64,000 nucleotides of DNA from Protonemura montana (Eukaryota; Arthropoda; Insecta; Plecoptera; Nemouridae): contig OX387609.1 in the NCBI GenBank assembly GCA_947568835.1, forward strand, positions 15,518,708 to 15,582,707, written 5' to 3'. Below, piece by piece: positions 6,828-48,914 of the stretch. Made by a program: the position numbers and the translations under genes. The stretch's first letter is position 1. Each line of letters begins with the position of its first letter. Below the pieces are notes generated by a model. It worked only from the letters and a program-made list of their open reading frames with translations, had not been told where the DNA came from and did not search any database.

Positions 6828-8061
6828 TTCTGTTCGGGAGAGAGGTTGGAGGGATGAAAGCTAAGCAACACTGCGCTGGGTCAGGTATTGGATGGGTTAC
6901 CATCATACACATGACCAGTTCTGTTCGAGAGAGAGGTTGGAGGGATGAAAGCTAAGCAACACTGCGCTGGGTCAGGTATTGGATGGGTTACCATCATACA
7001 CATGACCAGTTCTGTTCGGGAGAGAGGTTGGAGGGATGAAAGCTAAGCAACACTGCGCTGGGTCAGGTATTGGATGGGCGACCACCATACACATGACCAG
7101 TTCTGTTCGGGAGAGAGGTTGGAGGGATGAAAGCTAAGCTACACTGCGCTGGGTCAGGTATTGGATGGATGACCATCACACACATGACCAGTTCTGTTCG
7201 GGAGAGAGGTTGGAGGGATGAAAGTTAAGCTACACTGCGCTGGGTCAGGTATTGGATGGGTGTCCATCATACACATGACCAGTTCTGTTCGGGAGAGAGG
7301 TTGGAGGGATGAAAGTTAAGCAACACTACGCTGGATCAGATATTGGATGGGTGACCATCATACACATGACCAGTTCTGTTCGGGAGAGAGGTTGGAGGGA
7401 TGAAAGTTAAGCAACACTGCGCTGGGTCAGGTATTGGATGGGTGACCATCATACACATGACCAGTTCTGTTCGGGAGAGAGGTTGGAGGGGTGAAAGTTA
7501 AGCAACACTGCGCTGTGTCAGGTATTGGATGGATGACCATCATACACATGACCAGTTCTGTTCGGGAGAGAGGTTAGAGGGATGAGAGTTAAGCAACACT
7601 GCGCTGAGTCAGGTATTGGATGGATGACCATCACACACATGACCAGTTCTGTTCGGGAGAGAGGTTGGAGGGATGAAAGTTAAGCAACACTGCGCTGAGT
7701 CAGGTATTGGATGGATGACCATCATACACATGACCAGTTCTGTTCGGGAGAGAGGCTGGAGGGATGAAAGTTAGTACAGCAACTTCACTCGCCTTGCTTA
7801 TCAACCTCTCGACAGCATGGATTTGTGGAGGAATCCTGTTGTTCGCGTTGAACTGTCCTTCGGAAGGGACGTTAAGCCGGTGATCCCCTTGGTGCTCTTC
7901 GACAGGAGTAGGCTACGTGCCAGCACCGAGTTTCCCCTCCTCCCTTCTAGGCTAGGTTAGGTTCATCATCATCCACTCATTCACCGACGCCATTAGACCA
8001 GTGCCGCATGGCCAGATGTCGAAACAGTGCGTCGTTAAACACCACAAATAATAATAATAAT
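6828..8061 (+). mobile_element. 5S-derived SINE with 91-bp internal array
   Basis: This copy is truncated at its 5' end. About ten 91-bp units (6828-7770) carry the 5S-like segment (gttaagcaacactgcgctgg, then tattggatgggtgacc) and the linker gagaggttggagggatgaaa. They run into the intact body (ttagtacagcaacttcactc, then cctcggaaggga-type core) and the tail, ending gtgcgtcgttaaacaccac and (AAT)n. The unit-to-body junction shows that the array is an expansion inside one SINE rather than separate insertions. Confidence 0.9.
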
Positions 8062-8436
8062 CTTTATGGGTTCGTTGAAACGATTGTTATTGTTGCTTCT
8101 TCCACTGCATGGTGTTGTTGTCATGGAATGATGCTGCGTTCTGATTGGCTGACAACATCGAACTGCGATGTTAACTTCACCCTCGTGACCCACGCAAGCT
8201 TACACATGTCAGTGCTGACCGACGCCGAAGCGCTGCCGACGTCGACGTCGGTCTTGGCACGAGCGTCGGGACGCCCTACAAGGCGCGAGCTGCGGCGTCG
8301 CTGTCACAGGCTCGGGTTGCGTCGTTCGGCGTCGAAAACATCGACGCCGGGTGACGGCGCAACTGCAGGCGGACGCCCACTCAAGCGATCTGAGCCAGAG
8401 TTCGATGACTTCTCTGAGTTGATTAAGAGACGTTGA
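8062..8436 (+). other. Weak possible coding stretch
   Basis: An open frame from ATG 8206 to the stop at 8434 encodes about 76 residues, Arg/Ser/Thr-rich, ending in a mixed acidic/basic stretch. The GC content is higher than that of its neighbours. No family is recognised, no convincing splice sites are seen, and it abuts SINE sequence. Probably non-coding. Confidence 0.15.
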
Positions 8437-9390
8437 TGCAATTGTTTGGGCATCAATTTTTGAGACGTTTATAGTGTTCATGATAATAAATTACCCCGCG
8501 CATTGCAAGCGTTTGCAATTTATATAAGATTTCATCCTAATACAGCAACGAATCCAACGTCAAATTGGAGTTATTCAAGTTTGACAGGTTGTGACGTGAT
8601 ATAGCGTCACTAGAATCAGAGTGACTGTGAGTATTCACAGCCTCATGGTTCTACTCCTTGGAGATCCGTCATTCTCATCAAATACACTAAAATCGTCTAA
8701 AAAGCTTGTGTCCAAGTAGCTCAATTGGTTTGAGCAACACCCGTGACACGTGGAGATCGGGGTTCGAGTAGCTCAATTGGTTAGAGCAACACCCGCGACA
8801 GGTGGAGATCGGGGTCCAAGTAGCTCAATAGCTTAGAGCAACACCCGCGACAGGTGGAGATCGGGGTCCAAGTAGCTCAATTGGTTAGAGCAACACCCGC
8901 GACAGGTGGAGATCGGGGTCCAAGTAGCTCAATTGGTTAGAGCAACACCCGCGACAGGTGCAGATCGGGGTCCAAGTAGCTCAATTGGTTAGAGCAACAC
9001 CCGCGACAGGTGGAGATCGGGGTCCAAGTAGCTCAATTGGTTAGAGCAACATCCGCGACAGGTGGAGATCGGGGTTCAAGTAGCTCAATTGGTTAGAGCA
9101 ACACCCGCGACAGGTGGAGATCGGGGTCCAAGTAGCTCAATTGGTTAGAGCAACACCCGCGACAGGTGGAGATCGGGGTCCAAGTAGCTCAATTGCTTAG
9201 AGCAACACCCGCGACAGGTGGAGATCGGGGTCCAAGTAGCTCAATTGGTTAGAGCAACACCCGCGACAGGTGGAGATCGGGGTCCAAGTAGCTCAATTGG
9301 TTAGAGCAACACCCGCGACAGGTGGAGATCGGGGTTCGAGTCCCCGTTTGGGCTTCAATTTTTGAGACGGTTATAATGTTGATAATAATA
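8437..9390 (+). mobile_element. tRNA-derived SINE with 52-bp array
   Basis: In order: tail-type sequence with the quasi-palindrome gcattgcaagcgtttgcaat (about 8498), a body including gtgactgtgagtattcacag, about 12 copies of a 52-bp tRNA-like unit (8708-9345), then the T-arm ccccgtttggg and the tail aatttttgagacggttataa. The unit holds an A-box-like tagctcaattggttagagc. Only the last unit continues into a full B box (ggttcgagtcc) and T-stem. Pol III transcription is inferred from these boxes. Confidence 0.88.
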
Positions 9391-9481
9391 TAAAAATGTG
9401 ACATTACTGTCCAACACCTCTCAACTGAAGAAATCCATGCTTCAATGTTCCACCATCTTGCAATTCACCAGTTTGCTATGA

Positions 9482-9497
9482 GGGGGGGGGGGGGGGG
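9482..9497 (+). repeat. Poly-G run
   Basis: An uninterrupted run of about 16 G residues. Similar runs lie near 19501 and 61908. Such tracts can form quadruplexes and are prone to length error in sequencing. Confidence 0.8.
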
Positions 9498-9682
9498 ATC
9501 CTGAAAACAGATTTAGTGAATGGATCTCAACGCCTTCACACATTCGATGGTCACTGTCTGAAGTCTCTTAAATACTTTTGTTGTGTTGGTGCCAGTGGGT
9601 GGGGTCACTCGAACAAACAGGTGGTCGCTCACCTGTTCGTACAGGCTCAGTGACGTCATGATACTGGCTGTCTAGTTTAGTT

Positions 9683-9794
9683 AGGATGAAATCTGATTCA
9701 AATTGCAAACGCTTGCAATGCGCGGGGTATTTTATTATTACCAACACTATAAACGTCCCGAAAATTGATGTCCAAACCGGGACACGAACCCGGA
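9683..9794 (-). mobile_element. tRNA-SINE tail, truncated by 13-bp array
   Basis: A - strand copy of the SINE tail reads as far as the B-box/T-arm (gacacgaacccgg on +). The head sequence that should follow is replaced by the 13-bp array. Confidence 0.8.
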
Positions 9795-10230: not shown

Positions 10231-10521
10231 TGGCCGCCAAACCATCTCAGATGGAAACAGTAAAGATACAATCATTTACATTTTCCAATCTGTTAAATAA
10301 CACGACAGCACCGACGTCATTCAAACAGTGCGTCGTAAATCACGTCACAATCATCAACGTCATTTTACACCGTCTCGTTTCGCCGCGTTACGCAATTTCC
10401 AAGTCTATTTCCGCTGATTCGGACCACAAAAACATTAAACAACTCCGCGCTGCGAAACCGCGGCACGCTGTCATTTCTGAAAATAATCCTCCGCGAGGCC
10501 CAATCCGTGTCCCACTTGTGG

Positions 10522-10556
<35 letters not shown>

Positions 10557-15534: not shown

Positions 15535-15548
15535 AAGTTGGTAGCACT

Positions 15549-15970
15549 GTTGAGTGCAGGTTCTAGGTAGAGAAACAACGTCAATGTTTCAGTCTCTGCG
15601 TGAAAGATGGCCGCCAAATGACTACCTTACCGACAAAAATGCAGAGTACCGGAACATTGCGTTAAGTGGAGCCACTGTCGTATGAATTTTAATTTCGATA
15701 TTTCTCGTAGGTTAACTCGCTTTTGAGACTTTTCATGCTTAAAAAATCTCCATCAATGTTTACCTCAACGATTGATAAACACATAACGATATTAAAAAGT
15801 GAGTAAGCTGACGAGAAATATCGAAATTAAATTTCATACGACAGTGGCTCCACTTAACGTGATGTTCCGGTACTCTGCATTTTTGTCGGTAAGGTAGTCA
15901 TTTGGCGGCCATCTTTCACGCAGAGACTGTAACATTAACGTTGTTTCTCTACCTATAACCTATACTCAAC
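15549..15970. mobile_element. Foldback MITE, copy 1
   Basis: A 422-bp near-perfect inverted repeat with ends GTTGAGTGcaggttctagg and its complement. The arms carry agatggccgccaaatgacta and atttcgatatttctcg, with a short loop around 15750-15790. It lies 14 bp beyond the stop of the long ORF, so it sits in a 3' UTR or intron. The same element recurs at 35129-35390 and 54037-54459. No transposase is present. Confidence 0.88.
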
Positions 15971-17072: not shown

Positions 17073-18362
17073 ATTTGTGGTGTTAAACGACGCACTTTTT
17101 TGACATCTGGTCATGCGGCACTAGTCTAATGGCGTCGGTGAATGAGTGGATGATGATGAGGATGATGATGAACCTAACCTAGCCTAGAAGAGAGGAGGGG
17201 AAACCTGGTGCCGGCACGTAGCCTACTCCTGTCGAAGAGCACCAAGGGGACCACCGGCTTAACGTCCCTTCCGAAGGACGGTACAACGCGAACAACAGGA
17301 TTCCTCCACAAATCCATGCTGTCGAGAGGTTGATAAGCAAGGCGAGTGAAGTTGCTGTACTAACTTTCATCCCTCCAACCTCTCTCCCGAACAGAACTGG
17401 TCATGTGTATGATGGTCACCCATCCAATACCTGACCCAGCACAGTGTTGCTTAACTTTCATCCCTCCAACCTCTCTCCCAAACAGAACTGGTCATGTGTA
17501 TGATGGTCACCCATCCAATACCTGACCCAGCGCAGTGTTGCTTAACTTTCATCCCTCCAACCTCTCTCCCGAACAGAACTGGTCATATGTATGATGGTCA
17601 CCCATCTAATACCTGACTCAGCGCAGTGTTGCTTAACTTTCATCCCTCCAACCTCTCTACCGAACAGAACTGGTTATGTGTATGATGGTCACCCATCCAA
17701 TACCTGACTCAGCGCAGTGTTGCTTAACTTTCATCCCTCCAACCTCTCTCCCGAACAGAACTGGTCATGTGTATGATGGTCACCCATCCAATACCTGACT
17801 CAGCGCAGTGTTGCTTAACTTTAATCCCTCCAACCTTCCTCCCAAACAGAACTGGTCATGTGTATGATGATCACCCATCCAATACCTGACCCAGCGCAGT
17901 GTTGCTTAACTTTCATCCCTCCAACCTCTCTCCCGAACAGAACTGGTCATGTGTATGATGGTCACCAGCCAATACCTGACCCAGCGCAGTGTTGCTAAAC
18001 TTTCATCCCTTCAACCTCTCTCCCGAACAGAACTGGTCATGTGTATGATGGTCACCAGCCAATACCTGACCCAGCGCAGTGTTGCTTAACTTTCATCCCT
18101 CCAACCTCTCTCCCAAACAGAACTGGTCATGTGTATGATGATCACCCATCCAATACCTGACCCAGCGCAGTGTTGCTTAACTTTCATCCCTCCAACCTCT
18201 CTCCCGAACAGAACTGGTCATGTGTATAATGGTCACCAGCCAATACCTGACCCAGCGCAGTGTTGCTTAACTTTCATCCCTCCAACCTCTCTCCCAAACA
18301 GAACTGGTCATGTGTATGATGGTCACCCATCCAATACCTGACCCAGCGCAGTGTTGCTTAAT
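17073..18362 (-). mobile_element. 5S-derived SINE with 91-bp array
   Basis: On the - strand: tail (17073-17160), body (17161-17370), then about 11 copies of the 91-bp unit (17371-18362). The outer 5S head is missing. Individual units vary at tgactcagcg/tgacccagcg and at a 2-bp deletion (gtcaccagcc). Confidence 0.9.
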
Positions 18363-18802
18363 TTTAATTTAAAAAAAATGCTACACCAATATGGCTGCCA
18401 TTAACGGGTTTCTATGGCGACAAGAGAGTCTGAAAGAGGAGGGGGATTTATAACCTCCCCCCCTCCCTTCATCCTTCAAAGGTCACCGAGCTCGTGAAAC
18501 AATAAAACTACGATCCAGACACCTGACATTTCTAAAGCCACCTGGAATTTGTGACCCAAATCACGCTGCACCAACCTTGACTCCTCCCCCTACAAACTGA
18601 CGTCACGGACTGTGTCGGTCACCCACCCGCTGAGTGGACCAACACATTGTTGCTTAACTTGAAGGTTCACAAGATTATTAGACGGTCTCGGGGCTCAAAC
18701 TGGCCGTTGTCTTCGATTGCACAAAAACAGTCAAAATGGCCGACCTTCCAGATTTTAGCTCGGAGTTGTTTTATTTCAATTTTGAAGCTCAAAGCTTGAA
18801 TT
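18363..18802. other. Spacer with decayed 5S-like fragment
   Basis: Mostly unique sequence. Around 18618-18651 a decayed 5S-SINE fragment is visible on the - strand (ttgttgcttaacttg). No gene is seen. Confidence 0.45.
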
Positions 18803-19140
18803 TTTTATTATTAACAACACTAAAACCGTCTCAAAAATTGATGCCCAAACGGGGACTCAAACCCCGATCTCCACCTATCGCGGGTGTTGCTCTAACCAAT
18901 TGAGCTACTTGGACACTGGCTTCTTGAGACGATTTTAGTGTATTTGATGAGAATGACAGTTCTCCAAGGAGTAGAACCAAGAGGCTGTGAATACTCACAG
19001 TCACTCTGATTCTAGTGACGCTATATCACGTCACAACCTGTCAATCTCGAATAACTCCAATTTGACGTTAAATGTGTTTTATTTATTTGAAATCTGATTT
19101 AAAATTGCAAACGCTTGCAATGCGCAGGGTATTTTATTTG
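18803..19140 (-). mobile_element. tRNA-derived SINE, single head unit
   Basis: A - strand copy without tandem expansion: tail, T-arm and B box (ggggactcaaaccccgatct on +), one tRNA-like unit ending gagctacttggac, then body and terminal quasi-palindrome (attgcaaacgcttgcaat). It shows the unexpanded order for this family: terminal sequence, body, head, tail. Confidence 0.85.
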
Positions 19141-19142
19141 TA

Positions 19143-19298
19143 TGTCCAAGTAGCTCAATTGGTTAGAGCAACATCTGTGACAGGTGGAGATCGGGATTCG
19201 AGTCCCTGTTTGGGCATTAATTCTTGAGACGGTTATAGTGTTGATAATAATAAAATACCCCGCGCATTGCAAGCGTTTGCAATTTAAATAAGATTGCA
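19143..19298 (+). mobile_element. tRNA-derived SINE, + copy abutting
   Basis: Head, T-arm and tail of the same family in + orientation, adjoining the preceding - copy. The A box (tagctcaattggttagagc) and B box (gattcgagtcc) are both kept, followed by gagacggttatagtgttg and the quasi-palindrome. No body precedes it. Confidence 0.85.
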
Positions 19299-19969: not shown

Positions 19970-20866
19970 TTATTATTATTTGTGGTGTTTAACGACGCAC
20001 TGTTTTGACATCTGGTCATGCGCCACTGGTCTAATGGCGTCGGTGAATGAGTGGATGATGATGATGATGATGATGAACCTAACCTAGCCTAGAAGGGAGG
20101 AGGGGAAACCCGGTGCCGGCACGTAGCCTACTCCTGTCGAAGAGCACCAAGGGGACCACCGGCTTAACGTCCCTTCCGAAGGACGGTACAACGCGAACAA
20201 CAGGATTCCTCCACAAATCCATGCTGTCGAGAGGTTGATAAGCAAGGCGAGTGAAGTTGCTGTACTAACTTTCATCCCTTCAACCTCTCTCCCGAACAGA
20301 ACTGGTCATGTGTATGATGGTCACCCATACAATACCTGACCCAGCGCCGTGTTGCTTAACTTTTATCCCTCCAACCTCTCTCCCAAACAGAACTGGTCAT
20401 GTGTATGATGGTCACCCATCCAATACCTGACCCAGCGCAGTGTTGCTTAACTTTTATCCCTCCAACCTCTCTCCCGAACAGAACTGGTCATGTGTATGAT
20501 GGTCATCCATCCAATACCTGACCCAGCGCAGTGTTGCTTAGCTTTCATCCCTTCAACCTCTCTCCCGAACAGAACTGATCATGTGTATGATGATCACCCA
20601 TCCAATACCTGACCCAGCGCAGTGTTGCTTAACTTTCATCCCTCCAACCTCTCTCCCGAACAGAACTGGTCATGTGTATGATGGTCACCCATCCAATACC
20701 TGACCCAGCGCAGTGTTGCTTAACTTTCATCCCTCCAACCTCTCTCCCGAACAGAACTGGTCATGTGTATGATGGTCACCCATCCAATACCTGACCAAGC
20801 GCAGTGTTGCTTAACTTCGGTGATCTAACGAGAACCGGTGTTTCCAACACGCCAAACCGTTCGGTA
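19970..20866 (-). mobile_element. Full-length 5S-derived SINE with 91-bp array
   Basis: All parts are present on the - strand: (TTA)n tail, body, about six 91-bp units (20275-20815) and the outer head, which reads ccgaacggtttggcgtgttg on - and continues into the 5S segment. This shows that the amplified unit begins inside the 5S sequence, not at its outer edge. Confidence 0.92.
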
Positions 20867-26692: not shown

Positions 26693-27372
26693 TGGTCACT
26701 CATTCAAAGCCCGATCCAGCTCAGTGTCGCTTAACTTTCATCCCTCCAACCTCTCTCCCGAACAGAGCTGGTTATGTGTATGATGGTCACCCATTCAATA
26801 CCTGACTCAGCGCAGTGTTGCTTAACTTTCATCGCTCCAACCTCTATCCCGAACAGAACTGGCCATGTGTATGATGATCACCCATTCAATACCTGACTCA
26901 GCGCAGTGTCGCTTAACTTTCATCCCTCCAACCTCTCTCCCGAACAGAACTGGTCATGTGTATGATGGTCACCCATCCAATACCTGACTCAGCGCAGTGT
27001 CGCTTAACTTTCATCCCTCCAACCTCTCTCCCAAACAGAACTGGTCATGTGTATGATGATCACCCATCCATTACCTGACCCAGCGCAGTGTCGTTTAACT
27101 TTCATCCCTCCAACCTCTCTCCCGAACAGAACTGGTCATGTGTATGATGATCACCCATCCAATACCTGACTCAGCGCAGTGTTGCTTAACTTTCATCCCT
27201 CCAACCTCTCTCCCGAACAGAACTGGTCATGTGTATGATGATCACCCATCCAATACCTGACCCCGCGCAGTGTTGCTTAACTTTCATCCCTCCAACCTCT
27301 CTCCCGAACAGAACTGGTCATGTGTATGATGATCACCCATCCAATACCTGACCCAGCGCAGTGTTGCTTAAC
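26693..27372 (-). mobile_element. 5S-derived 91-bp array, no body
   Basis: About 7.5 copies of the 91-bp unit in - orientation. Neither SINE body nor tail is attached. The right edge stops inside the 5S-like sequence (gttgcttaac). Confidence 0.88.
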
Positions 27373-28638: not shown

Positions 28639-29166
28639 ATATTCGCCTTGCTTATCAACCTCTCGACAGCAACTTCACTCGCCTTGCTTATCAACCTCTC
28701 GACAGCAACTTCACTCGCCTTGCTTATCAACCTCTCGTCAGCAACTTCATTCGCCTTGCTTATCAACCTCTTGACAGCAACTTCACTCGCCTTGCTTATC
28801 AACCTCTCGACAACAACTTCACTCGCCTTGCTTATCAACCTCTCGACAGCAACTTCACTCGCCTTGCTTATCAACCTCTCGTCAGCAACTTCATTCGCCT
28901 TGCTTATCAACCTCTCGACAGCAACTTCACTCGCCTTGCTTATCAACCTCTCGACAGCAACTTCACTCGCCTTGCTTATCAACCTCTCGTCAGCAACTTC
29001 ACTCGCCTTGCTTATCAACCTCTCGACAGCATGGATTTGTGGAGGAATCCTGTTGTTCGCGTTGTACCGTCCTTCGGAAGGGACGTTAAGCCGGTGGTCC
29101 CCTTGGTCTTCGACAGGAGTAGGCTACGTGCCGGCACCGGGTTTCCCCATCTCCCTTCTAGGTTAG
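28639..29166 (+). mobile_element. 5S-SINE body with 36-bp array
   Basis: About 11 copies of a 36-bp unit (aacttcactcgccttgctta, then tcaacctctcgacagc). The unit is the first segment of the 5S-SINE body, and the array continues without a break into the rest of the body (catggatttgtggaggaatc, then cggaagggacgttaagccgg). The tail is missing. The 5S head is also absent. Confidence 0.92.
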
Positions 29167-29208
29167 ACAGAAAGCTACCGAAACGCATAGAACGAAGCTA
29201 GATGCATA

Positions 29209-29480
29209 CCGAACGGTTTCGCGTGCTGGAAACACCGGTTCTCGTGAGATCACCGAAGTTAAGCAACACTGCGCTGGGTCAGGTATTGGATGGGTGACCA
29301 TCATACACATGACCAGTTCTGTTCGGGAGAGAGGTTGGAGGGATGAAAGTTAGTACAGCAACTTCACTCGCCTTGCTTATCAACCTCTCGACAGCATGGA
29401 TTTGTGAAGGAATCCTGTTGTTCGCGTTGTACCGTCCTTCGGAAGGGAAGTTAAGCCGGTGGTCCCCTTGGTGCTCTTCG
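29209..29480 (+). mobile_element. 5S-SINE with a single head unit
   Basis: The outer head (ccgaacggtttcgcgtgctg), 5S segment, linker and first half of the body follow one another with only one copy of the 91-bp segment. It ends inside the body at gtgctcttcg. This is the unexpanded form against which the arrays can be compared. Confidence 0.9.
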
Positions 29481-29904
29481 AGCAGACGACAATTTTGGTT
29501 GTAATTTCAAACTTTGGAGCTCGAAATCTCCCCGGTCCCACAAATTCGAAGAAAAGTGATAAAGTCTACTTCCTGTCGAGATTACTTAGCTTCCTGTGGG
29601 AGCCACACGTCCTAATAGCGAACAATTAGTGAAGCAACGAGCAGGGAAAACAAGGTCACCACATTCACCCACACGGCACCCTAAACTCACACCTGCTCTG
29701 TAGACTAAACCCAGGCGCTACTGACAATATCAAGACAGCAGGCACTAGGTATAAATAACAAACATATATTTCATTGAAATAACAATCCTGAAATAACTCG
29801 GCTTACTCTGCGGCGGTCTTGTGGGCGAAATGACTTTGTTCTTAACTCAGAGTTAAAAAAAAATATAAATATATATCACGAACATTCCCTTTGTAAGGTG
29901 CCAA
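29481..29904. other. Unique region, no gene supported
   Basis: AT-rich with a short (ATAT) run at about 29860. No exon or element is recognised. Confidence 0.4.
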
Positions 29905-30749
29905 GCCGAACGTTTTGTAAACACAGATCCTCGTGAGATCACTGAAGTTAAGCAACACTGCGCTGGGTCAGGTATTGGATGGGTGACCATTATACACATG
30001 ACCAGTTCTGTTCGGGAGAGAGGTTGGAGTGATGAAAGTTAAGCAACACTGCGCTGGGTCAGGTATTGGATGGGTGACTATCATACACATGACCAGTTCT
30101 GTTCGGGAGAGAGGTTGGAGGGATGAAAGTTAAGCAACACTGCGCTGAGTCAGGTATTGGATGGGTGACCATCATACACATGACCAGTTCTGTTCGGGAG
30201 AGAGGTTGGAGGGATGAAAGTTAAGCAACACTGCGCTGGGTCAGGTATTGGATGGGTGACCATCATATACATGACCGGTTCTGTTCGGGAAAGAGGTTGG
30301 AGGGATGAAAGTTAAGCAACACTGCGCTGGGTCAGGTATTGGATGGGTGACCATCTTACACATGACCAGTTCTGTTCGGGAGAGAGGTTGGAGGGATGAA
30401 AGTTAAGCAACACTGCGCTGGGTCAGGTATTGGATGGGTGACCATCATACACATGACCGGTTCTGTTCGGGAGAGAGGTTGAAGGGATGAAAGTTAAGCA
30501 ACACTGCGCTGGGTCAGGTATTGGATGGGTGATTATCATACACATGACCAGTTCTGTTTGGGAGAGAGGTTGGAGGGATGAAAGTTAAGCAACACTGCGC
30601 TGGGTCAGGTATTGGATGGGTGACCATCATATACATGACCGGTTCTGTTCGGGAGAGAGGTTGGAGGGATGAAAGTTAAGCAACACTGCGCTGGGTCAGG
30701 TATTGGATGGGTGACCACCGAACGGTTTGGCGTGTTGGAAACACCGGTC
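29905..30749 (+). mobile_element. 5S-derived array with both junction types
   Basis: It starts with an outer head (ccgaacgttttgtaaacac), then about nine 91-bp units. At the right edge the last unit runs directly from ggtgacc into a second outer head (accgaacggtttggcgtg), the junction type used at 56204-57076. No body or tail follows. Confidence 0.88.
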
Positions 30750-32917: not shown

Positions 32918-32925
32918 TCTCTACC

Positions 32926-33710
32926 TGTCGCGGGTGTTGCTCTAACCAATTGGGCTACTTGGACCCCGATCTCCACCTGTCGCGGGTGTTGCTCTAACCA
33001 ATTGAGCTACTTGGACCCCGATCTCCACCTGTCACGGGTGTTGCTCTAACCAATTGAGCTACTTGAACCCCGATCTCTACCTGTCGTGGGTGTTGCTCTA
33101 ACCAATTGAGCTACTTGGACCCCGATCTCCACCTGTCGCGGGTGTTGCTCTAACCAATTGAGCTACTTGGACCCCGATCTCCAGTTGTCGCGGGTGTTGC
33201 TCTAACCAATTGAGCTACTTGGACCCCGATCTCCACCTGTCGCGGGTGTTGCTCTAACCAATTGGGCTACTTGGACCCCGATCTCCACCTGTCGTGGGTG
33301 TTGCTCTAACCAATTGAGCTACTTGAACCCCGATCACCACCTATCGCGGGTGTTGCTCTAACCAATTGAGCTACTTGGACCCTGATCTCCACCTGTCGTG
33401 GGTGTTGCTCTAACCAATTGAGCTACTTGAACCCCGATCTTCACCTGTCGCGGGTATTGCTCTAACCAATTGAGCTACTTGGACACTTGCTTTTTGAGAC
33501 GATTTTAGTGTATTTGATGAGAATGACGGATCTCCAAGGAGTAGAACCAAGAGGCTGTGAATACTCACAGTCACTCTGATTCTAGTGACGCTATATCACG
33601 TCACAACCTAGAAAACGTCCAATTGGACGTTGGATGCGTTGCTGTTTTAGGATGAAGTCTTATTTAAATTGCAAACGCTTGCAATGCGCGGGGTATTTTA
33701 TTATTATAAT
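32926..33710 (-). mobile_element. tRNA-SINE with 52-bp array
   Basis: On the - strand, about 10.5 tRNA-like units (32926-33480) join a body (33481-33650) and end in the quasi-palindrome. In element orientation the array lies at the 3' side and the distal T-arm and tail are missing. CpG positions differ between units (tgtcgcggg/tgtcgtggg). Confidence 0.88.
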
Positions 33711-36564: not shown

Positions 36565-37904
36565 AATTATGTGTCATGACATGTCAGAGTCACTGTACCG
36601 TGATGCTAGCATGACATGTCAGAGTCACTGTACCGTGATGCTGTCATGACATGTCAGAGTCACTGTACCGTAATGCTGCCATGACATGTCAGAGTCACTG
36701 TACCGTGATGCTGCCATGACATGTCAGAGTCACTGTACCGTGATGCTAGCATGACATGTCAGAGTCACTGTATCGTGATGCTGCCATGACATGTCAGAGT
36801 CACTGTACCGTGATGCTGTCATGACATGTCAGAGTCACTGTACCGCGATGCTGGCATGACATGTCAGAGTCACTGTATCGTGATGCTAGCATGACATGTC
36901 AGAGTCACTGTACCGTAATGCTGCCATGACATGTCAGAGTCACTGTACCGTGATGCTGCCATGACATGTCAGAGTCACTGTACCGTGATGCTAGCATGAC
37001 ATGTCAGAGTCACTGTATCGTGATGCTGCCATGACATGTCAGAGTCACTGTACCGTGATGCTGTCATGACATGTCAGAGTCACTGTATCGCGATGCTAGC
37101 ATGACATGTCAGAGTCACTGTATCGTGATGCTGTCATGACATGTCAGAGTCACTGTACCGTGATGCTGTCATGACATGTCAGAGTCACTGTACCGTGATG
37201 CTATCATGACATGTCAGAGTCACTGTACCGTGATGCTAGCATGACATGTCAGAGTCACTGTACCGTGATGCTAGCATGACATGTCAGAGTCACTGTACCG
37301 TGATGCTGTCATGACATGTCAGAGTCACTGTACCGCGATGCTGCCATGACATGTCAGAGTCACTGTACCGTGATGCTAGCATGACATGTCAGAGTCACTG
37401 TACCGTGATGCTAGCATGACATGTCAGAGTCACTGTACCGTGATGCTAGCATGACATGTCAGAGTCACTGTACCGTGATGCTGCCGTGACATGTCAGAGT
37501 CACTGTACCGTGATGCTGACATGATATATCAGAGTCACTGTACCGTGATGCTGTCATGACATGTCAGAGTCACTGTACCGTGATGCTAGCATGACATGTC
37601 AGAGTCACTGTACCGTGATGCTGCCATGACATGTCAGAGTCACTGTACCGTGATGCTAGCATGACATGTCAGAGTCACTGTACCGTGATGCTGTCATGAC
37701 ATGTCAGAGTCACTGTACCGTGATGCTGGCATGATATGTCAGAGTCACTGTACCGTGATGCTGCCATGACATGTCAGAGTCACTGTACCGTGATGCTGCC
37801 ATGACATGTCAGAGTCACTGTACCGTGATGCTGCCATGACATGTCAGAGTCACTGTACCGTGATGCTAGCATGACATGTCAGAGTCACTGTACCGCGATG
37901 CAGT
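36565..37904. repeat. 35-bp minisatellite
   Basis: About 38 copies of a 35-bp unit (atgacatgtcagagtcactg, then taccgtgatgctNNc). Almost all variation falls in the last bases (ctagc, ctgtc, ctgcc, ctggc) plus c/t at taccg/tatcg. The unit contains the near-palindrome gtcatgacatgtc. Confidence 0.95.
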
Positions 37905-38438
37905 CAAGCAAACCTGGACAGCAGACACCTGAAGAAATGAAATCCCAAGAATAGATTTTAATCACCCCTTCCCCTTTAAATCAGGTCGAGGTCATGACCT
38001 TTACCCCCTCCACTCTAACGAAGTCGCTACTAGGGCGTCGGCGTGCTCGTGACGTCGTGACAATGACGTCACAGAGTTTGCGCGATGAGTTTCAATTCTT
38101 CGCTAATTTTAGCAATGAACTCGCGGTAGTAGATGGAGCGGGGGAGGGGCATGAGTCACGAGTTCGAGGAGAATAACATTCGATCCAATGAAACGTTTGA
38201 AGTTAAGCAACATCGTGCCGATTCAAGCCGTGGATGGCCAACCAAATAACCAGCGCATTTGAATTTTAATCACACATTCATCTTCTACAGAAATAATGCT
38301 CGCCTATGAACAGACCTTCTCTGCGTCCCCTTATCTCTCGCCCATTAGAACCAGTGCCGCATGGCCAGTTGTCAAAACAGTGCGTCGTTAAACACTACAA
38401 ATAAATAAATATAAATAATCCTCTCGACCGACGGAAAC
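37905..38438. mobile_element. Divergent 5S-SINE, otherwise unique
   Basis: A decayed 5S-like segment (gaagttaagcaacatcgtgc) at about 38199 and a SINE tail (gccgcatggccagttgtcaa, cgtcgttaaacac) at 38346-38406 bracket unrelated sequence. This looks like an older, divergent member of the 5S family. No gene is seen. Confidence 0.55.
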
Positions 38439-39328
38439 CGAACGGTTTGGCGTGTTGGAAACACCGGTTCTCGTTAGATCACCGAAGTTAAGCAACACTG
38501 CGCTGGGTCAGGTATTGGATGGGTGACCATCATACACATGACCAGTTCTGTTTGAGAGAGAGGTTGGAGGGATGAAAGTTAAGCAACACTGTGCTGAGTC
38601 AGGTATTGGATGGGTGACCATCATACACATGACCAGTTCTGTTCGGGAGAGAGGTTGAAGGGATGAAAGTTAAGCAACACTGCGCTGGGTCAGGTATTGG
38701 GTGGGTGACCATCATACACATGACCAGTTCTGTTTGTGAGAGAGGTTGGAGGGATGAAAGTTAAGCAACACTGCGCTGGGTCAGGTATTGGATGGGTGAC
38801 CATCATACACATGACCAGTTCTGTTTGGAAGAGAGGTTGGAGGGATGAAAGTTAAGCAACACTGCGCTGGGACAGGTATTGGATGGGTGACCATCATGAC
38901 CAGTTCTGTTCGGGAGAGAGGTTGGAGGGATGAAAGTTAAGCAACACTGCGCTGGGTCAGGTATTGGATGGGTGACTATCATACACATGACCAGTTCTGT
39001 TCGGGAGAGAGGTTGGAGGGATGGAAGTTAGTACAGCAACTTCACTCGCCTTGCTTATCAACCTCTCGACAGCATGGATTTGTGGAGGAATCCTGTTGTT
39101 CGCGTTGTTCCGTCCTTCGGAAGGGACGTTAAGCCGGTGGTCCCCTTGGTGCTCTTCGACAGGAGTAGGCTATGTGCCGGCACCAGGTTTCCCCTTCTCC
39201 CTTCTAGGCTATTTTAGTTTCATCATCATCATCCACTCATTCACCGACGCCATTAGACCAGTGCCGCATGGCACGTTGTCAAAACAGTGCGTCGTTAAAC
39301 ACCACAAATAATAATAATAATAATAATC
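38439..39328 (+). mobile_element. Full-length 5S-derived SINE before LIM exon
   Basis: Outer head (ccgaacggtttggcgtgttg), about six 91-bp units, body, and tail ending in (AAT)n at 39328. The tail lies only about 30 bases before the acceptor of the LIM exon at 39359, so the element fills the intron right up to the splice signals. Confidence 0.93.
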
Positions 39329-39358: not shown

Positions 39359-39559
39359 CTTATTTTCAGCGGAGAGTACACCAAGGCGATGTCCAAGGAT
39401 TGGCACTCCGGGCACTTCTGCTGCTGGCAGTGCGATGAATCGCTCACTGGACAGCGCTACGTGCTACGTGACGACCACCCGTATTGCATCAAGTGCTACG
39501 AGTCTGTCTTTGCTAATATGTGCGAGGAGTGCAGCAAGACCATCGGCATTGACTCCAAG
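39359..39559 (+). CDS. FHL/Limpet-type LIM protein, exon with LIM1
   Basis: A 67-residue phase 0/0 exon opens with LIFSGEYTKAM and carries the second half of zinc finger 1 and all of finger 2 of a LIM domain: WHSGHFCCWQC (H-x2-H-x2-C-x2-C), then YCIKCYES. It continues with CEEC, the first two zinc ligands of the next LIM domain. These match the FHL/Limpet family almost residue for residue. Family members are cytoskeletal and nuclear adaptor proteins, prominent in muscle, built of four and a half LIM domains. The CxxC that opens LIM1 must lie on an upstream exon that I could not find. The donor is aag|gtaccg. Confidence 0.95.
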
Positions 39560-40197
39560 GTACCGTGTTCGATCCTTCTTGCATTCTGTAGGTCCCAGGT
39601 TCGATCCTTCCTGCATTCTGTAGGTCCCAGGTTCGATCCTGGTGGTCGGCTATCCTGGTAGTGAGAGCGCCATATCTGCCTTGCATTCGGGTGGTCCCAG
39701 GTTCGATCCTGGTGGCCGGCTATCCTAGTAGTGAGAGCGCCATGTCTGCCTTGCATTCGGGAGGTCCCAGGTTCGATTCTGGTGGCCGGCTATCCTGGTA
39801 GTGAGAGAGCCATGTCTGCCTTGCATTCGGGAGGTCCCAGGTTCGATCCTGGTGGCCGGCTATCCTAGTAGTGAGAGCGCCACGTCTGCCTTGCATTCGG
39901 GAGGTCCCAGGTTAGATCCTTCCTGCATTCCGTAGGTCCCAGGTTCGATCCTGGTGGCCGGCTATCCTAGTAGTGAGAGCGCCATGTCTGCCTTGCATTC
40001 GGGAGGTCCCAGGTTCGATCCTGGTGGCCGGCTATCCTAGTAGTGAGAGCGCCATGTCTGCCTTGCATTCGGGAGGTCCCAGGTTTGATCCTGGTGGCCG
40101 GCTATCCTGGTAGTGAGAGCGCCATGTCTACCTTGCATTCGGGAGGTCCCAGGTTTGATCCTGGCAGTTGTGACTCACGCCTCTGTTTATCCTGCAG
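39560..40197 (+). repeat. tRNA-like 70-bp array filling LIM intron
   Basis: Almost the whole intron consists of about eight copies of a 70-bp unit with a tRNA-like make-up: tagtgagagcgcc (A-box-like), a ccttgcattcggg stretch where an anticodon arm would be, and ggtcccaggttcgatcctgg (B box and T-arm), then tggccggctatcc. The anticodon-like tgc and overall form resemble tRNA-Ala. Truncated units lie at the left edge (39570-39640) and about 39910. The acceptor is ctgcag|gac at 40197. Confidence 0.85.
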
Positions 40198-40372
40198 GAC
40201 TTGAGCTACAAGGACAAGCACTGGCACGAGGCCTGCTTCCTGTGCAACAAGTGCAGAGTATCGCTGGTTGACAAGCAGTTTGGCTCCAAGGCGGATAAAA
40301 TCTACTGCGGTAACTGCTACGACTCGCAGTTCGCATCCCGGTGCGATGGATGCGGAGAGATCTTCCGTGCAG
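40198..40372 (+). CDS. FHL/Limpet-type LIM protein, exon with LIM2
   Basis: A 175-base exon of 58 residues plus one base. It begins DLSYKDKHWHEACFLCNKC (H-x2-C-x2-C-x2-C) and continues to YCGNCYDSQFASRCDGCGE, where CDGC opens LIM3. It ends FRAG with the Gly codon split after its first base (gcag|gtcagt). In the family the next residues belong to LIM3, so the following exon must begin in that phase. I searched the rest of the window for it and did not see it. The gene therefore continues past the right edge or has a very long intron. Confidence 0.95.
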
Positions 40373-41275: not shown

Positions 41276-41813
41276 ATTATTATTATTATTATTTGTGGTG
41301 TTTAACGACGCACTGTTTTAACATCTGGTCATGCGGCACTGGTCTAATAGCGTCGGTGAATGAGTGGATGATGATGAGGATGATGATGAACCTAACATAG
41401 CTTGGAAGGGAGGAGGGAAACCCGGTGCCGGCACGTAGCCTACTCCTGTCGAAGAGCACCAAGGGGACCACCGGCTTAACGTCCCTTCCGAAGGACGGTA
41501 CAACGCGAACAACAGGATTCCTCCACAAATCCATGCTGTCGAGAGGTTGATAAGCAAGGCGAGTGAAGTTGCTGTACTAACTTTCATCCCTCCAACCTCT
41601 CTCTCGAACAGAACTGGTCATGTGTATGATGGTCACCCAGTCAATACCTGACCCAGCGCAGTGTTGCTTAACTTTCATCCCTCCAACCTCTCTCTCGAAC
41701 AGAACTGGTCATGTGTATGATGGTCACCCATTCAATACCTGACTCAGCGCAGTGTTGATTAACTTCGGTGATCTAACGAGAACCGGTGTTTCCAGCACGT
41801 CAAACCGTTTGGT
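41276..41813 (-). mobile_element. Full-length 5S-derived SINE, two units
   Basis: All parts are on the - strand: (TTA)n tail, body, two 91-bp units and the outer head (ends at about 41813). It is a short array and close to the single-unit form. It lies in the intron after LIM2, in opposite orientation to the gene. Confidence 0.92.
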
Positions 41814-42033: not shown

Positions 42034-42765
42034 AGCGGAGTTGAGCAACACTGCACTGGGTCAGGTATTGGATGGGTGACCATCATACACATGACCAGTT
42101 CTGTTCGGGAGAGAGGTTGGAGGGATGAAAGATAAGCAACACTGCGCTGGGTCAGGTATTGGATGGGTAACCATCATACACATGACCAGTTCTGTTTGGG
42201 AGAGAGGTTGGAGGGAAGAAAGTTAAGCAACACTGCGCTGGGTCAGGTATTGGATGGGTGATCATCATACACATGACCAGTTCTGTTTGGGAGAGAGGTT
42301 GGAGGGATGAAAGTTAAGCAACACTGTGCTGGGTCAGGTATTGGATGGGTGACCATCATACACATGACCAGTTCTGTTCGGGACAGAGGTTGGAGGGATG
42401 AAAGTTAAGCAACACTGCGCTGGGTCAGGTATTGGGTGGGTGACCATCATACACATGACCAGTTCTGTTCGGGAGAGAGGTTGGAGGGATGAAAGTTAAG
42501 CAACACTGCGCTGAGTCAGGTATTGGATGGGTGACCATCAGACACATGACCAGTTCTGTTCGGGAGAGAGGTTGGAGGGATGAAAGTTAAGCAACACTGC
42601 GCTGGGTCAGGTATTGGATGGGTGACCATCATACACATGACCAGTTCTGTTCGGGAGAGAGGTTGGAGGGATGAAAGTTAAGCAACACTGCGCTGAGTCA
42701 GGTATTGGATGGGTGACCATCATACACATGACCAGTTCTGTTCGGGAGAGAGGTTGTAGGGATTA
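42034..42765 (+). mobile_element. 5S-derived 91-bp array
   Basis: About eight units in + orientation. It lacks the outer head, body and tail. The last unit has gagaggttgtagggatta before unique sequence. Confidence 0.88.
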
Positions 42766-43794: not shown

Positions 43795-43846
43795 TTATTT
43801 TATTATTATCAACGCTATAACCGTCTCAAAAATTGATGCCCAAACT
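43795..43846 (-). mobile_element. tRNA-SINE tail fragment, inverted
   Basis: A - strand tail (aacgctataaccgtctcaaa) joins directly to the + strand body of the following copy. Confidence 0.75.
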
Positions 43847-44800
43847 CCTTGGAGATCTGTCATTCTCATCAAATACACTAAAATCGTCTCTAAAAGCCGG
43901 TGTTCAAGTAGCTCAATGGTTCAGAGCAACACCCGCGACAGGTGGAGATCGGGGTCCAAGTAGCTCAATTGGTTAGAGCAACACCCACGACAGGTGGAGA
44001 TCGGGGTCCAAGTAGCTCAATTGGTTAGAGCAACACCCGCGACAGGTGGAGATCGGGGTCCAAGTAGCTCAATTGGTTAGAGCAACACCCGCGACAGGTG
44101 GAGATCGGGGTTCGAGTAGCTCAATAGGTTAGAGCAACACCCACGACAGGTGGAGATCGGGGTCCAAGTAGCTCAATTAGTTAGAGCAACACCCGCGACA
44201 GGTGGAGATCGGGGTCCAAGTAGCTCAATTGGTCAGAGCAACACCCGCGACAGGTGGAGATCGGGGTCCAAGTAGCTCAATTGGTTAGAGCAACACCCGT
44301 GACAGGTGGAGATCGGGGTCCAAGTAGCTGAATTGGTTAGAGCAACACTCGTGACAGGTGGAGATCGGGGTCCAAGTAGCTCAATTGGTTAGAGCAACAC
44401 CCGCGACAGGTGGAGATCGGGGTCCAAGTAGCTCAATTGGTTAGAGCAACACCCGTGACAGGTGGAGATCGGGGTCCAAGTAGCTCAATTGGTTAGAGCA
44501 ACACCCGCGACAGGTGGAGATCGGGGTCCAAGTAGCTCAATTGGTTAGAGCAACACCCACGACAGGTGGAGATCGGGGTCCAAGTAGCTCAATTGGTTAG
44601 AGCAACACCCGCGACAGGTGGAGATCGGGGTCCAAGTAGCTCAATTGGTTAGAGCAACACCCGCGACAGGTGGAGATCGGGGTTCGAGTCCGCGTTTGGA
44701 CATCAATTTTTGAAACGGTTATAGTGTTGATAATAATAAAATACCCCGCGCATTGCAAGCGTTTGCAATTTAAATAAGATTTCATCCTAACAAAGTATAA
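43847..44800 (+). mobile_element. tRNA-SINE with 52-bp array
   Basis: A short body (ggagatctgtcattctcatc) is followed by about 15.5 tRNA-like 52-bp units (43885-44690), then B box, T-arm and full tail with quasi-palindrome (about 44750-44790). This is the longest tRNA-SINE array in the window. Only the terminal unit and a unit near 44107 (ggggttcgagtagctc) keep the B-box start. Confidence 0.9.
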
Positions 44801-45132: not shown

Positions 45133-46339
45133 TTATTATTATTATTAATTGTAGTGTTTAACGACGCACTGTTTTGGCAACGTGCCGTGCGGCACTGGTC
45201 TAATGGCGTCGGTGAATGAGTGGATGATGATGATGAGGATGATGATGAACCTAACCTAGCCTAGAAGTGAGGAGGGGAAACCCGGTGCCGGCACGTAGCC
45301 TACTCCTGTCGAAGAGCACCAAGGGGATCACCGGCTTAACTTCCCTTCCGAAGGACGGTACAACACGAACAACAGGATTCCTCCACAAATCCATGCTGTC
45401 GAGAGGTTGATAAGCAAAGCGAGTGAAGTTGCTGTACTAACTTTCATCCCTCCAACCTCTCTCCCGAACAGAACTGGTCATGTGTATGATGGTCACCCAT
45501 CCAATACCTGACACAGCGCAGTGTTGCTTAACTTTCATCCCTCCAACCTCTCTACCGAACAGAACTGGTCATGTGTATGATGGTCACTCATCCAATACCT
45601 GACTCAGCGCAGTGTTGCTTAACTTTCATCCCTCCAACCTCTCTCCTGAACAGAACTGGTCATGTGTATGATGGTCACCCATCCAATACCTGACCCAGCG
45701 CAGTGTTGCTTAACTTTCATCCCTCTAACCTCTCTCCCGAACAGAACTGGTCATGTGTATGATGGTCACCCATCCAATACCTGACCCAGCGCAGTGTTGC
45801 TTAACTTTCATCCCTTCAACCTCTCTCCCGAACAGAACTGGTCATGTGTATGATGGTCACTCATCCAATACCTGACTCAGCGCAGTGTTGCTTAACTTTC
45901 ATCCCTCTAACCTCTCTCCCGAACAGAACTGGTCATGTGTATGATGGTCACCCATCCAATACCTGACCCAGCGCAGTGTTGCTTAACTTTCATCCCTCCA
46001 ACCTCTCTCCCAAACAGAACTGGTCATGTGTATGATGGTCACCCATCCAATACATGACTCAGCGCAGTGTTGCTTAACTTTCATCCCTCCAACCTCTCTC
46101 CTGAACAGAACTGGTCATGTGTATGATGGTCACCCATCCAATACCTGACCCAGCGCAGTGTTGCTTAACTTTCATCCCTCTAACCTCTCTCCCGAACAGA
46201 ACTGGTCATGTGTATGATGGTCACCCATCCAATACCTGACCCAGCGCAGTGTTGCTTAACTTTCATCCCTCCAACCTCTCTCCCAAACAGAACTGGTCAT
46301 GTGTATGATGGTCACCCATCCAATACCTGACCCAGCGCA
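45133..46339 (-). mobile_element. 5S-derived SINE with 91-bp array
   Basis: On the - strand: (TTA)n tail, body (45250-45440) and about ten 91-bp units, cut at the right within the 5S segment (cccagcgcat). The outer head is missing. Confidence 0.9.
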
Positions 46340-46590
46340 TAGTTTGAAAGTAAAACCCTGGAGATACAAAGCGACGACATGAGACATGCACTTTATATGC
46401 AGTTTCTTTGCTGCACTCGCTTGATGGTCACGTGATTATCATGATTTGATTGATTCCACGAACCGGAATGAGGTTGGCGTCGAACACGCGACGACGGCGA
46501 CCTCTTTCCAGCCAGACGCCCGACTCGACCGGGGCGTTGCACTGCCTTCACGACTGGACTTTTCTGCCATGTGCCATTATTAAACTTCCA
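46340..46590. other. Spacer between opposed arrays
   Basis: About 250 bp of unique sequence separates a - strand array from a + strand array of the same unit, giving a large inverted arrangement. Confidence 0.5.
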
Positions 46591-48914
46591 CCATGACCAG
46601 TTCTGTTCGGGAGAGAGGTTGGAGGGATGAAAGTTAAGCAACACTGCGCTGGGTCAGGTATTGGATGGGTGACCATCATACACATGACCAGTTCTGTTCG
46701 GGAGAGAGGTTGGAGGGATGAAAGTTAAGCAACACTGCGCTGGGTCAGGTATTGGATGGGTGACCATCATACACATGACCAGTTCTGTTCGGGAGAGAGG
46801 TTGAAGGGATGAAAGTTAAGCAACACTGCGCTGAGTCAGGTATTGGATGGGTGACCATCATACACATGACCAGTTCTGTTCGGAAGAGAGGTTGAAGGGA
46901 TGAAAGTTAAGCAACACTGCGCTGGGTCAGATATTGAATGAGTGACCATCATACACATGACCAGTTCTGTTTGGGAGAGAGGTTGGAGGGATGAAAGTTA
47001 AGCAACACTGCGCTGGGTCAGGTATTGGATGAGTGACCATCATACACATGACCAGTTCTGTTCGGGAGAGAGGTTGGAGGGATGAAAGTTAAGCAACACT
47101 GCGCTGGGTCAGGTATTGGATGGGTGACCATCATACACATGACCAGTTCTGTTCGGGAGAGAGGTTGGAGGGATGAAAGTTAAGCAACACTGCACTGAGT
47201 CAGGTATTGGATGGGTGACCATCATACACATGACCAGTTCTGTTTGGGAGAGAGGTTGGAGGGATGAAAGTTAAGCAACACTGCGCTGGGTCAGGTATTG
47301 GATGGGTGACCATCATACACATGACCAGTTCTGTTCGGGAGAGAGGTTGGAGGGATGAAAGTTAAGCAACACTGCGCTGGGTCAGGTATTGGATGGGTGA
47401 CCATCATACACATGACCAGTTCTGTTCGGGAGAGAGGTTGGAGGGATGAAAGTTAAGCAACACTGCACTGAGTCAGGTATTGGATGGGTGACCATCATAC
47501 ACATGACCAGTTCTGTTTGGGAGAGAGGTTGGAGGGATGAAAGTTAAGCAACACTGCGCTGGGTCAGGTATTGGATGGGTGACCATCATACACATGACCA
47601 GTTCTGTTTGGGAGAGAGGTTGGAGGGATGAAAGTTAAGCAACACTGCGCTGGGTCAGGTATTGGATGGGTGACCATCATACACATGACCAGTTCTGTTT
47701 GGGAGAGAGGTTGGAGGGATGAAAGTTAAGCAACACTGCGCTGGGTCAGGTATTGGATGGGTGACCATCATACACATGACCAGTTCTGTTTGGGAGAGAG
47801 GTTGGAGGGATGAAAGTTAAGCAACACTGCGCTGGGTCAGGTATTGGATGGGTGACCATCATACACATGACCAGTTCTGTTTGGGAGAGAGGTTGGAGGG
47901 ATGAAAGTTAAGCAACACTGCGCTGGGTTAGGTATTGGATGGGTGACCATCATACACATGACCAGTTCTGTTTGGGAGAGAGGTTGGAGGGATGAAAGTT
48001 AAGCAACACTGCGCTGGGTCAGGTATTGGATGGGTGATCATCATACACATGACCAGTTCTGTTTGGGAGAGAGGTTGGAGTGATGAAAGTTTAGCAACAC
48101 TGCGCTGGGTCAGGTATTGGATGGGTGACCATCATACACATGACCAGTTCTGTTTGGGAGAGAGGTTGGAGGGATGAAAGTTAAGCAACACTGCGCTGGG
48201 TCAGGTATTGGATGGGTGCCCATCATACACATGACCAGTTCTGTTCGGGAGATGGGTTGGAGGGATGAAAGTTAAGCAACACTGCACTGGGTCTGGTATT
48301 GGATGGGTGACCATCATACACATGACCAGTTCTGTTCGGGAGAGAGGTTGAAGGGATGAAAGTTAAGCAACACTGCGCTGGGTCAGGTATTGGATGGGTG
48401 ACCATCATACACATGACCAGTTCTGTTCGGGAGAGAGGTTGAAGGGATGAAAGTTAAGCAACACTGCACTGGGTCAGGTATTGGATGGGTGGCCATCATA
48501 CACATGACCAGTTCTGTTTGGGAGAGAGGTTGAAGGGATGAAAGCTAAGCAACACTGCACTGGGTCAGGTATTGGATGGGTGGCCATCATACACATGACC
48601 AGTTCTGTTCGGGAGAGAGGTTGGAGGGATGAAAGTTAAGCAACACTGCGCTGGGTCAGGTATTGGATGGGTGACCATCATACACATGACCAGTTCTGTT
48701 CGGGAGAGAGGTTGGAGGGATGAAAGTTAAGCAACACTGCGCTGGGTCAGGTATTGGATGGGTGACCATCATTCACATGACCAGTTCTGTTCGGGAGAGA
48801 GGTTGGAGGGATGAAAGTTAAGCAACACTGCGCTGGGTCAGGTATTGGATGGGTGACCATCATTCACATGACCAGTTCTGTTCGGGAGAGAGGTTGTAGG
48901 GATGAAAGTTAAGT
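46591..48914 (+). mobile_element. Largest 5S-derived 91-bp array
   Basis: About 25.5 units with no head, body or tail attached. Blocks of neighbouring units share variants: a run with ctgtttggg from about 47515 to 48165, and a tgcactgag unit at 47191 repeated at 47464 (273 bp, three units). This indicates recent local duplication. Confidence 0.92.

What the first reader, a model, noticed from the sequence alone, without database searches (positions are those of the whole stretch)
6828..48914. 5S-rRNA-headed SINE repeatedly turned into 91-bp satellite arrays
At least ten loci carry the same 91-bp unit in 2 to about 25 copies, several of them still joined to one SINE head, body and tail (38439-39328, 19970-20866, 41276-41813). 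The unit spans box A- and box C-like parts of 5S rRNA (gttaagcaac, attggatgggtgacc) plus the SINE linker. Single-unit form: 29209-29480. The sequence shows expansion inside individual insertions rather than one array broken up. I know of no description of this for a 5S SINE, but cannot search.
Basis: partly seen in the sequence, partly recalled or inferred. Interest (0 to 1): 0.75.

Follow-up and report, generated by a model that had tools for sequence, protein, structure and literature searches.

The report
5S-headed SINE with tandem repeat core
A small jumping element with a 5S-RNA-like front end carries a 91-letter segment in one to about 25 copies; the copies in one element are often of different subtypes, so these arrays were not simply grown from a single local copy.

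Summary
The window has 98 full 91-bp units at 14 loci, 12 of them with 2-25 units, several joined to a 5S-derived head and a SINE body. The whole assembly has 25,143 unit-unit junctions.

Multi-unit elements are separate insertions (target-site duplications 16/35 versus 16/36 in single-unit ones) and local growth occurs. But units of different loci largely intermix, 1 of 34 arrays has a locus-fixed change, first and second units match in subfamily type no more than by chance (6/38, expected 5.8), and the first-unit/body linkage of single-unit elements is absent (0/8 versus 7/7). Many elements thus look like mosaics of different SINE copies joined at a 6-bp repeat, later remodelled in place. 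Arrays concentrate near chromosome ends where tested.

SINE-derived subtelomeric satellites are described for squamate tRNA SINEs (PMC10702118), microhomology-driven VNTRs for SVA/LAVA (PMC4432496). This is a 5S-headed variant in an unidentified animal. Whether mosaics form during reverse transcription or by recombination is open.

The parts
6827..8049 (+). partial unit + 10 full 91-bp units + SINE body, no head
17073..18364 (-). 11 units + SINE body, no head
19978..20865 (-). complete element: 5S head, 6 units, body; 13-bp target-site duplication with 1 mismatch
26693..27372 (-). 7 units + a partial, diverged unit, no head or body
28643..29031 (+). 36-bp array made of a segment of the same SINE's body; unit bounded by the direct repeat ACAGCA
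29208..29481 (+). single-unit element (head, one unit identical to the array consensus, truncated body)
29256..29261 (+). AAGTTA, left copy of the 6-bp direct repeat bounding the 91-bp unit (box A region of 5S; box name recalled)
29347..29352 (+). AAGTTA, right copy of the direct repeat, at the start of the SINE body
29911..30748 (+). partial head, 8 units, then the 92-bp-type junction to a second partial head
38437..39309 (+). complete element: head, 6 units, body; 12-bp target-site duplication with 1 mismatch
41291..41813 (-). complete element: head, 2 units, body; 14-bp target-site duplication with 1 mismatch
42039..42763 (+). 8 units, no head or body
45149..46339 (-). partial unit + 9 units + body, no head
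46592..48905 (+). largest array of the window: partial unit + 25 units, no head or body
52581..53083 (-). partial unit + 2 units + body (outside the stated range)
55454..55920 (+). 2 units + body, no head (outside the stated range)
56205..57069 (-). 92-bp array: repeated 5S head + first 45 bases of the unit, plus one full 91-bp unit (outside the stated range)

Best explanation
A 5S-rRNA-headed SINE (head about 48 bp, a 91-bp segment holding the 5S box A to box C part plus a linker, then body and tail) exists with one or with many copies of the 91-bp segment. Shown on the samples named below: the segment is bounded by a 6-bp direct repeat (AAGTTA); multi-unit elements are individual insertions with target-site duplications; in many of them head-side unit, inner units and body are of different subfamily types; arrays also change by local block duplication and unit loss; they concentrate near the ends of the large contigs tested. 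Inferred: extra units are gained by template switching or ectopic recombination between different SINE copies at the AAGTTA repeat, giving mosaics, and these are then remodelled in place by slippage or unequal exchange, as in SVA/LAVA VNTRs and squamate SINE-derived satellites. No host function is implied; each unit would still carry the 5S internal promoter boxes (box names recalled, transcription untested).
For: First and second unit share the three-site haplotype (columns 22, 34, 47) in 6 of 38 multi-unit elements, 5.8 expected from random pairing; body type TC goes with T47 units in 7 of 7 single-unit elements but with T47 first units in 0 of 8 multi-unit ones (p 1.6e-4); target-site duplications in 16/35 multi versus 16/36 single, null 0.3-0.8%. 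In 15 elements fetched for an A34 or T47 first unit, 2 of 33 further units have the first unit's haplotype (my count). Column 22: A/G 636/218 in single-unit elements, 435/801 in head-adjacent units followed by a unit (both include some 92-bp arrays), 54/156 (and 5 T) in 215 inner units of the sample. Locus-fixed change in 1 of 34 arrays (segmental copies L064 and L066 both counted). Unit and body divergence decoupled: of 23 arrays with 4+ units, 6 have too few unit changes for their body (P<0.01) and 5 too many (P 0.99 or more as printed). L064/L066 share flanks but have 10 and 9 units, with a 4-unit block repeated; L103/L104 share a target-site duplication but differ by a fusion of two units.
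Against: Inner units differ in make-up from head-adjacent ones, so units are not free draws from one pool. Last unit and body are not linked either (T47 last unit with TC body 1 of 6), which a single jump between two RNAs would predict. Nearby arrays are not more alike than distant ones and rare variant pairs are not shared in excess (6 versus 5.6 expected), so ongoing exchange between arrays is not seen. Locus clustering, though weak, is significant, and 22 of 34 arrays have locus-private shared variants. The three marker changes are all G>A or C>T, the class in excess in arrays, so recurrent mutation may blur them. All 8 T47-first multi-unit elements come from the 15 picked for their first unit (of 41 multi-unit elements), and region is not matched: only 3 of the 7 T47 single-unit elements lie within 5 Mb of an end. 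SINE repeats longer than 6 bp exist (7-8 bp) without an array seen in the window.
Confidence: 0.6

Rival explanations
1. Independent expansion of each insertion's own unit by replication slippage or unequal exchange between the AAGTTA repeats.
For: The 6-bp repeat bounds the unit, and a second, 36-bp array in the same SINE is bounded by another 6-bp repeat, ACAGCA. Local duplication is seen, 22 of 34 arrays carry variants private to the locus in two or more units, and the position bias suits a local DNA process.
Against: Founder changes should be fixed locus by locus: seen in 1 of 34 arrays with four or more units. First and second units are unrelated and body/first-unit linkage is absent. L065 has 19 rare body changes in 238 bases but 15 unit changes where 59.5 are expected, none fixed.
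Confidence: 0.15
2. A multi-unit master subfamily (SVA-like VNTR SINE) that retroposes as a whole, with 5' chimaeras made by reverse-transcriptase template switching.
For: Target-site duplications around whole arrays; W19978 has 1 rare change in 249 body bases but 9 in its units where 1.4 are expected; L070 has seven near-consensus units and a perfect 12-bp duplication; body subfamily CT enriched among multi-unit elements; multi-unit elements have younger bodies on average (rare changes 3.7% versus 5.5%).
Against: Multi-unit elements occur on several body types (11 label changes on the poorly resolved body tree versus 22.4 shuffled). L070's body (9 rare changes in 246) looks older than its units. 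Retroposition alone does not explain concentration at chromosome ends while near-identical T47 single-unit copies are scattered along C1 and C2.
Confidence: 0.3
3. Assembly or sequencing artefact.
For: Array units show excess transitions (Ti/Tv 2.57 versus 1.25 in single units and 1.14-1.31 in bodies); reads were not available.
Against: Many units within arrays are distinguishable, L070 is almost free of differences, elements have target-site duplications, and multi-unit elements are listed on several chromosomes.
Confidence: 0.04

Closest known systems
SINE-derived satellites (sSats) of squamate reptiles, Squam1/2/3 (PMC10702118; abstract, Background, start of Results, Squam3, localization and Discussion sections read)
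   Same: Tandem unit is an internal part of a SINE (in snakes from the head into the body); a terminal unit continues into the SINE; a few to many copies per locus; one genome can hold several unit types; subtelomeric preference.
   Different: Those SINEs have tRNA heads and arrays can reach hundreds of units; here the head is 5S-derived and the unit holds the 5S box A to C part. Unlinked unit types within one element, found here, are not described in the sections I read.
SVA/LAVA VNTR composite retrotransposons of hominoids (PMC4432496; passages read)
   Same: VNTR inside a non-autonomous retroposon; copy number differs between insertions; remodelling at DNA level with microhomology at breakpoints.
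   Different: Composite Alu-containing elements moved by L1; different sequence origin. That paper saw no VNTR change in new integrants and judged RNA-level change unlikely.
5S-derived SINEs (SINE3 class; known to me by recall and from the listing)
   Same: 5S-like head, body, short-repeat tail, target-site duplications.
   Different: None of my searches listed one with an internal array; the listed papers on 5S SINEs were not read.

Membership tests
SINE-derived satellite | tandem unit is a portion of a SINE present elsewhere in single form | tested here: met
   929 single-unit elements by exact pattern; alignment of 19 single-unit copies
SINE-derived satellite | arrays with four or more middle units | tested here: met
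   for example 10, 11 and 25 units in the window
SINE-derived satellite | terminal unit continues into the SINE terminus | tested here: met
   head or body (one of them a partial head) joined to 9 of 12 multi-unit arrays of the window; 4 of 12 lack a body
SINE-derived satellite | subtelomeric preference (reported property) | tested here: met
   C1 and part of C2; two-unit elements listed on C1-C5. Other chromosomes and telomere positions not tested
5S-derived SINE | 5S rRNA-like head | tested here: met
   Rfam RF00001 up to 68.8 bits
5S-derived SINE | target-site duplications | tested here: met
   16/36 single and 16/35 multi with score 9 or more, null 0.3-0.8%
5S-derived SINE | RNA polymerase III transcription | not testable with these tools
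   no RNA data
5S-derived SINE | 3' end shared with a partner LINE | not tested
   partner LINE was not searched
SVA-like VNTR retroposon | VNTR copied as a whole by retroposition | tested here: inconclusive
   young insertion with diverse units (W19978) for; decoupled ages and position bias against
SVA-like VNTR retroposon | Alu-like and SINE-R domains | not tested
   not searched for; the head is 5S-like
functional 5S rDNA array | complete 5S gene in each unit | tested here: not met
   the 91-bp unit lacks the first 48 bases of the head

The most novel reading that the evidence does not exclude
Arrays are built in a single retroposition event: reverse transcriptase copies one SINE RNA up to the AAGTTA repeat, then jumps repeatedly to other SINE RNAs at the matching repeat, so that each insertion is a concatemer of units from different subfamilies, seeding a satellite at birth.
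Probability: 0.25. Interest if true: 0.75.

Novelty: new variant of a known kind. Interest (0 to 1): 0.5.

Why it matters
It extends SINE-to-satellite conversion from squamate tRNA SINEs to a 5S SINE in another animal and, because subfamily markers survive inside the units, it separates two routes that are usually confounded: growth of one local unit versus assembly from different copies. The data favour assembly first and local growth second, near chromosome ends.

Tried and rejected
Considered and rejected: one array broken up by insertions (many elements have their own target-site duplication); true 5S rDNA (units lack the 5' part); exchange between neighbouring arrays (no distance effect: 287 of 2000 permutations as low; rare variant pairs 6 versus 5.6, 50 loci with L066 dropped); growth of arrays with age of the insertion (copy number versus body divergence among multi-unit elements, rho -0.03); a single body clade for multi-unit elements (11 label changes, but 1 of 65 inner branches starred, so one origin is not ruled out); first or last units more diverged than inner ones (not significant). 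Species: the chaetognath P. gotoi (257 Mb, 9 chromosome-size scaffolds; passages) was considered from genome size and dropped because at least 11 contigs here exceed 10 Mb; 200 bases of contig C20 were looked at as a possible mitochondrial contig and are mostly tandem repeat. No species was identified. The composition script failed on one array and was rerun. A DNA search with the 91-bp unit gave nothing, probably because common words are skipped; patterns were used instead. Paper searches gave listings only; none of those papers was read.
Full report
What is there. The window (contig C12, bases 15518708-15582707 of an 18.2-Mb contig in a 258-Mb assembly) is packed with tandem arrays. That it is an animal is my reading of the FHL-type LIM exons and genome size; the tools name no species. 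A 91-bp unit occurs as 98 full copies at 14 loci, 12 with two or more. Decomposition with head, unit and body gives complete elements HU6B, HU6B and HU2B at 19978-20865, 38437-39309 and 41291-41813, five headless arrays with a body, and four arrays without a body. The head and the first part of the unit match Rfam 5S_rRNA. The unit runs from the box A to the box C part of 5S plus further sequence (box names recalled).

Genome-wide. Patterns with up to two mismatches count 8508 head-unit, 25143 unit-unit and 8119 unit-body junctions, with 0 for reversed controls. Exact patterns count 929 single-unit and 230 two-unit elements. The first 60 loci came from exact matches on C1 up to 15.2 Mb, and the next 20 were picked on C1 from the listings, so the sample is not random.

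Why this unit. The unit starts with AAGTTAAGCAAC and the body with AAGTTAGTACAGCAAC, so a 6-bp direct repeat lies 91 bp apart. A 36-bp array in the body of the same SINE (28643-29031) is bounded by the repeat ACAGCA, 36 bp apart. The joined 433-bp SINE holds 25 direct-repeat pairs of 6 bp or more (15 on average in shuffles). By my rough estimate, not a tool result, a random duplication would end in such a pair about once in a thousand. Against this, six 7-bp pairs and one 8-bp pair have no array in the window, and the 92-bp array (56289-57076) has a junction with at most one shared base (read by eye), so microhomology is neither sufficient nor required.

Do units cluster by locus? In 321 units of 51 loci, within-locus difference is 3.53% and between-locus 4.28%; no permutation of 500 reaches this. 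The nearest neighbour is in the same locus for about 79 of 321 units (9 expected). Neighbouring units are slightly more alike than shuffled ones (0 of 300). Of 34 arrays with four or more units, 22 share private variants and 1 has a change fixed in all units (the segmental copies L064 and L066 are both in). So there is local duplication on top of a common pool. L064 and L066 show it directly: same flanks 1.44 Mb apart, 10 and 9 units, units 2-5 nearly repeated as 6-9. L103 and L104 have the same target-site duplication and differ by fusion of two units inside the unit.

Mosaics. Single-unit elements mostly carry A at unit column 22 (636 A, 218 G). Head-adjacent units followed by another unit are 435 A, 801 G (some of these are 92-bp arrays). 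In the sample, inner units are 54 A, 156 G, 5 T of 215 and head-adjacent ones in arrays of three or more 14 A, 8 G of 22. I then fetched 15 elements whose first unit had A34 or T47 or both, types also found in single-unit elements. Of their 33 further units 2 have the first unit's haplotype (my count). Over 38 multi-unit elements (41 less three segmental copies; 13 of them from the picked set), first and second unit share the haplotype at columns 22/34/47 in 6 (5.8 expected by random pairing), second and third in 13 of 26 (10.3 expected). T47 goes with a TC body in 7 of 7 single-unit elements and, by first unit, in 0 of 8 multi-unit elements, p 1.6e-4; by last unit in 1 of 6. All 8 are from the picked set, and regions are not matched: three of the seven single-unit T47 elements (L042, L080, L120) lie within 5 Mb of an end. 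The three marker changes are G>A or C>T, the class in excess in arrays, so some differences may be recurrent mutation.

Insertions. Target-site duplications pass the threshold in 16 of 35 multi-unit and 16 of 36 single-unit elements, against 0.3-0.8% for mismatched flanks. Multi-unit elements are therefore separate insertions as much as single-unit ones are.

Ages. Rare changes in body and unit correlate in single-unit elements (rho 0.55, p 0.002) but not significantly in multi-unit ones (rho 0.21, p 0.21). Of 23 arrays with four or more units, 6 have fewer unit changes than the body predicts (P<0.01) and 5 have more (printed P 0.99 or 1). Rare body subfamilies could mimic old bodies. The mean unit-to-body ratio does not differ between single and multi-unit elements (0.64 and 0.63).

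Position. With the A22 patterns, 29 of 33 multi (three 92-bp-type matches dropped) versus 17 of 45 single lie within 4 Mb of an end of C1 (p 7e-6), and on C2, up to 20.67 Mb where the single list stops, 16 of 18 versus 7 of 55 lie below 4.1 Mb (p 6e-9). Of the two-unit elements listed on C1-C5, 94 of 99 lie within 6 Mb of an end (my count); for A22 single-unit elements on C1 this is 29 of 45. The window itself is 2.65 Mb from the end of its contig. That contig ends are chromosome ends is assumed.

A further oddity. Array units have a transition excess: Ti/Tv 2.57 versus 1.25 in single units and 1.14-1.31 in bodies. In the window eight 91-bp arrays together have 3.79 and 18 other arrays 2.02. 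I have no explanation.

Comparison. The closest published case is the SINE-derived satellites of squamates: same architecture and subtelomeric preference, tRNA heads. Its authors invoke initial duplication by unequal recombination and later homogenisation. SVA/LAVA VNTRs are remodelled at DNA level with microhomology, and new LAVA integrants showed no VNTR change (passages), which argues against, but does not exclude, a reverse-transcriptase origin here. My searches listed no title on a 5S SINE with such arrays; the library holds open-licence papers only and the listings were capped.

Verdict. A real, abundant, 5S-headed member of a known kind, with a mosaic make-up that I did not find described. 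Retroposition of mosaics versus ectopic recombination near chromosome ends remains open: target-site duplications fit the first, the position bias fits the second.

Noticed in passing
8710-9335, 32918-33484, 43898-44683: A tRNA-like element (tRNA-Ser by ARAGORN at two of these) has 52-bp arrays of its 5' part; 13,517 such junctions in the assembly, and none of the exact ones listed on C1 lies between 2 and 19 Mb. Near 8760 one junction differs from the rest (by eye).
   Followed up: partly
18780-18960 and 19095-19291: Single copies of the tRNA-like sequence look flanked by inverted repeats (by eye; the second has a sub-threshold Rfam hairpin hit); possibly a foldback element carrying a tRNA-like segment.
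   Followed up: no
39567-40164: A 70-bp tRNA-like tandem array (resemblance by eye) lies between two FHL-type LIM exons (about 39359-39562 and 40198-40372; Pfam), so probably in an intron.
   Followed up: partly
49611-50262: A diverged relative of the 5S SINE with a 68-bp array in its body.
   Followed up: partly
whole window: Minisatellites with at least a dozen different units (13 to 114 bp); the 26 arrays tested are 96-99% identical between copies. Array formation is general here, not a property of one SINE.
   Followed up: partly
15665-15855, 54153-54342, 36575-37901: Rfam microRNA-precursor hits below the gathering score (MIR4208, MIR4371); probably inverted-repeat or tandem elements rather than microRNA genes.
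   Followed up: no
L102/L105 and L103/L104 (C2 near 18.56 Mb, C4 near 1.56 Mb): A pair of multi-unit SINEs in opposite orientation about 3.4 kb apart occurs on two chromosomes with matching unit types, so a duplicated or mobile larger segment may carry them.
   Followed up: no
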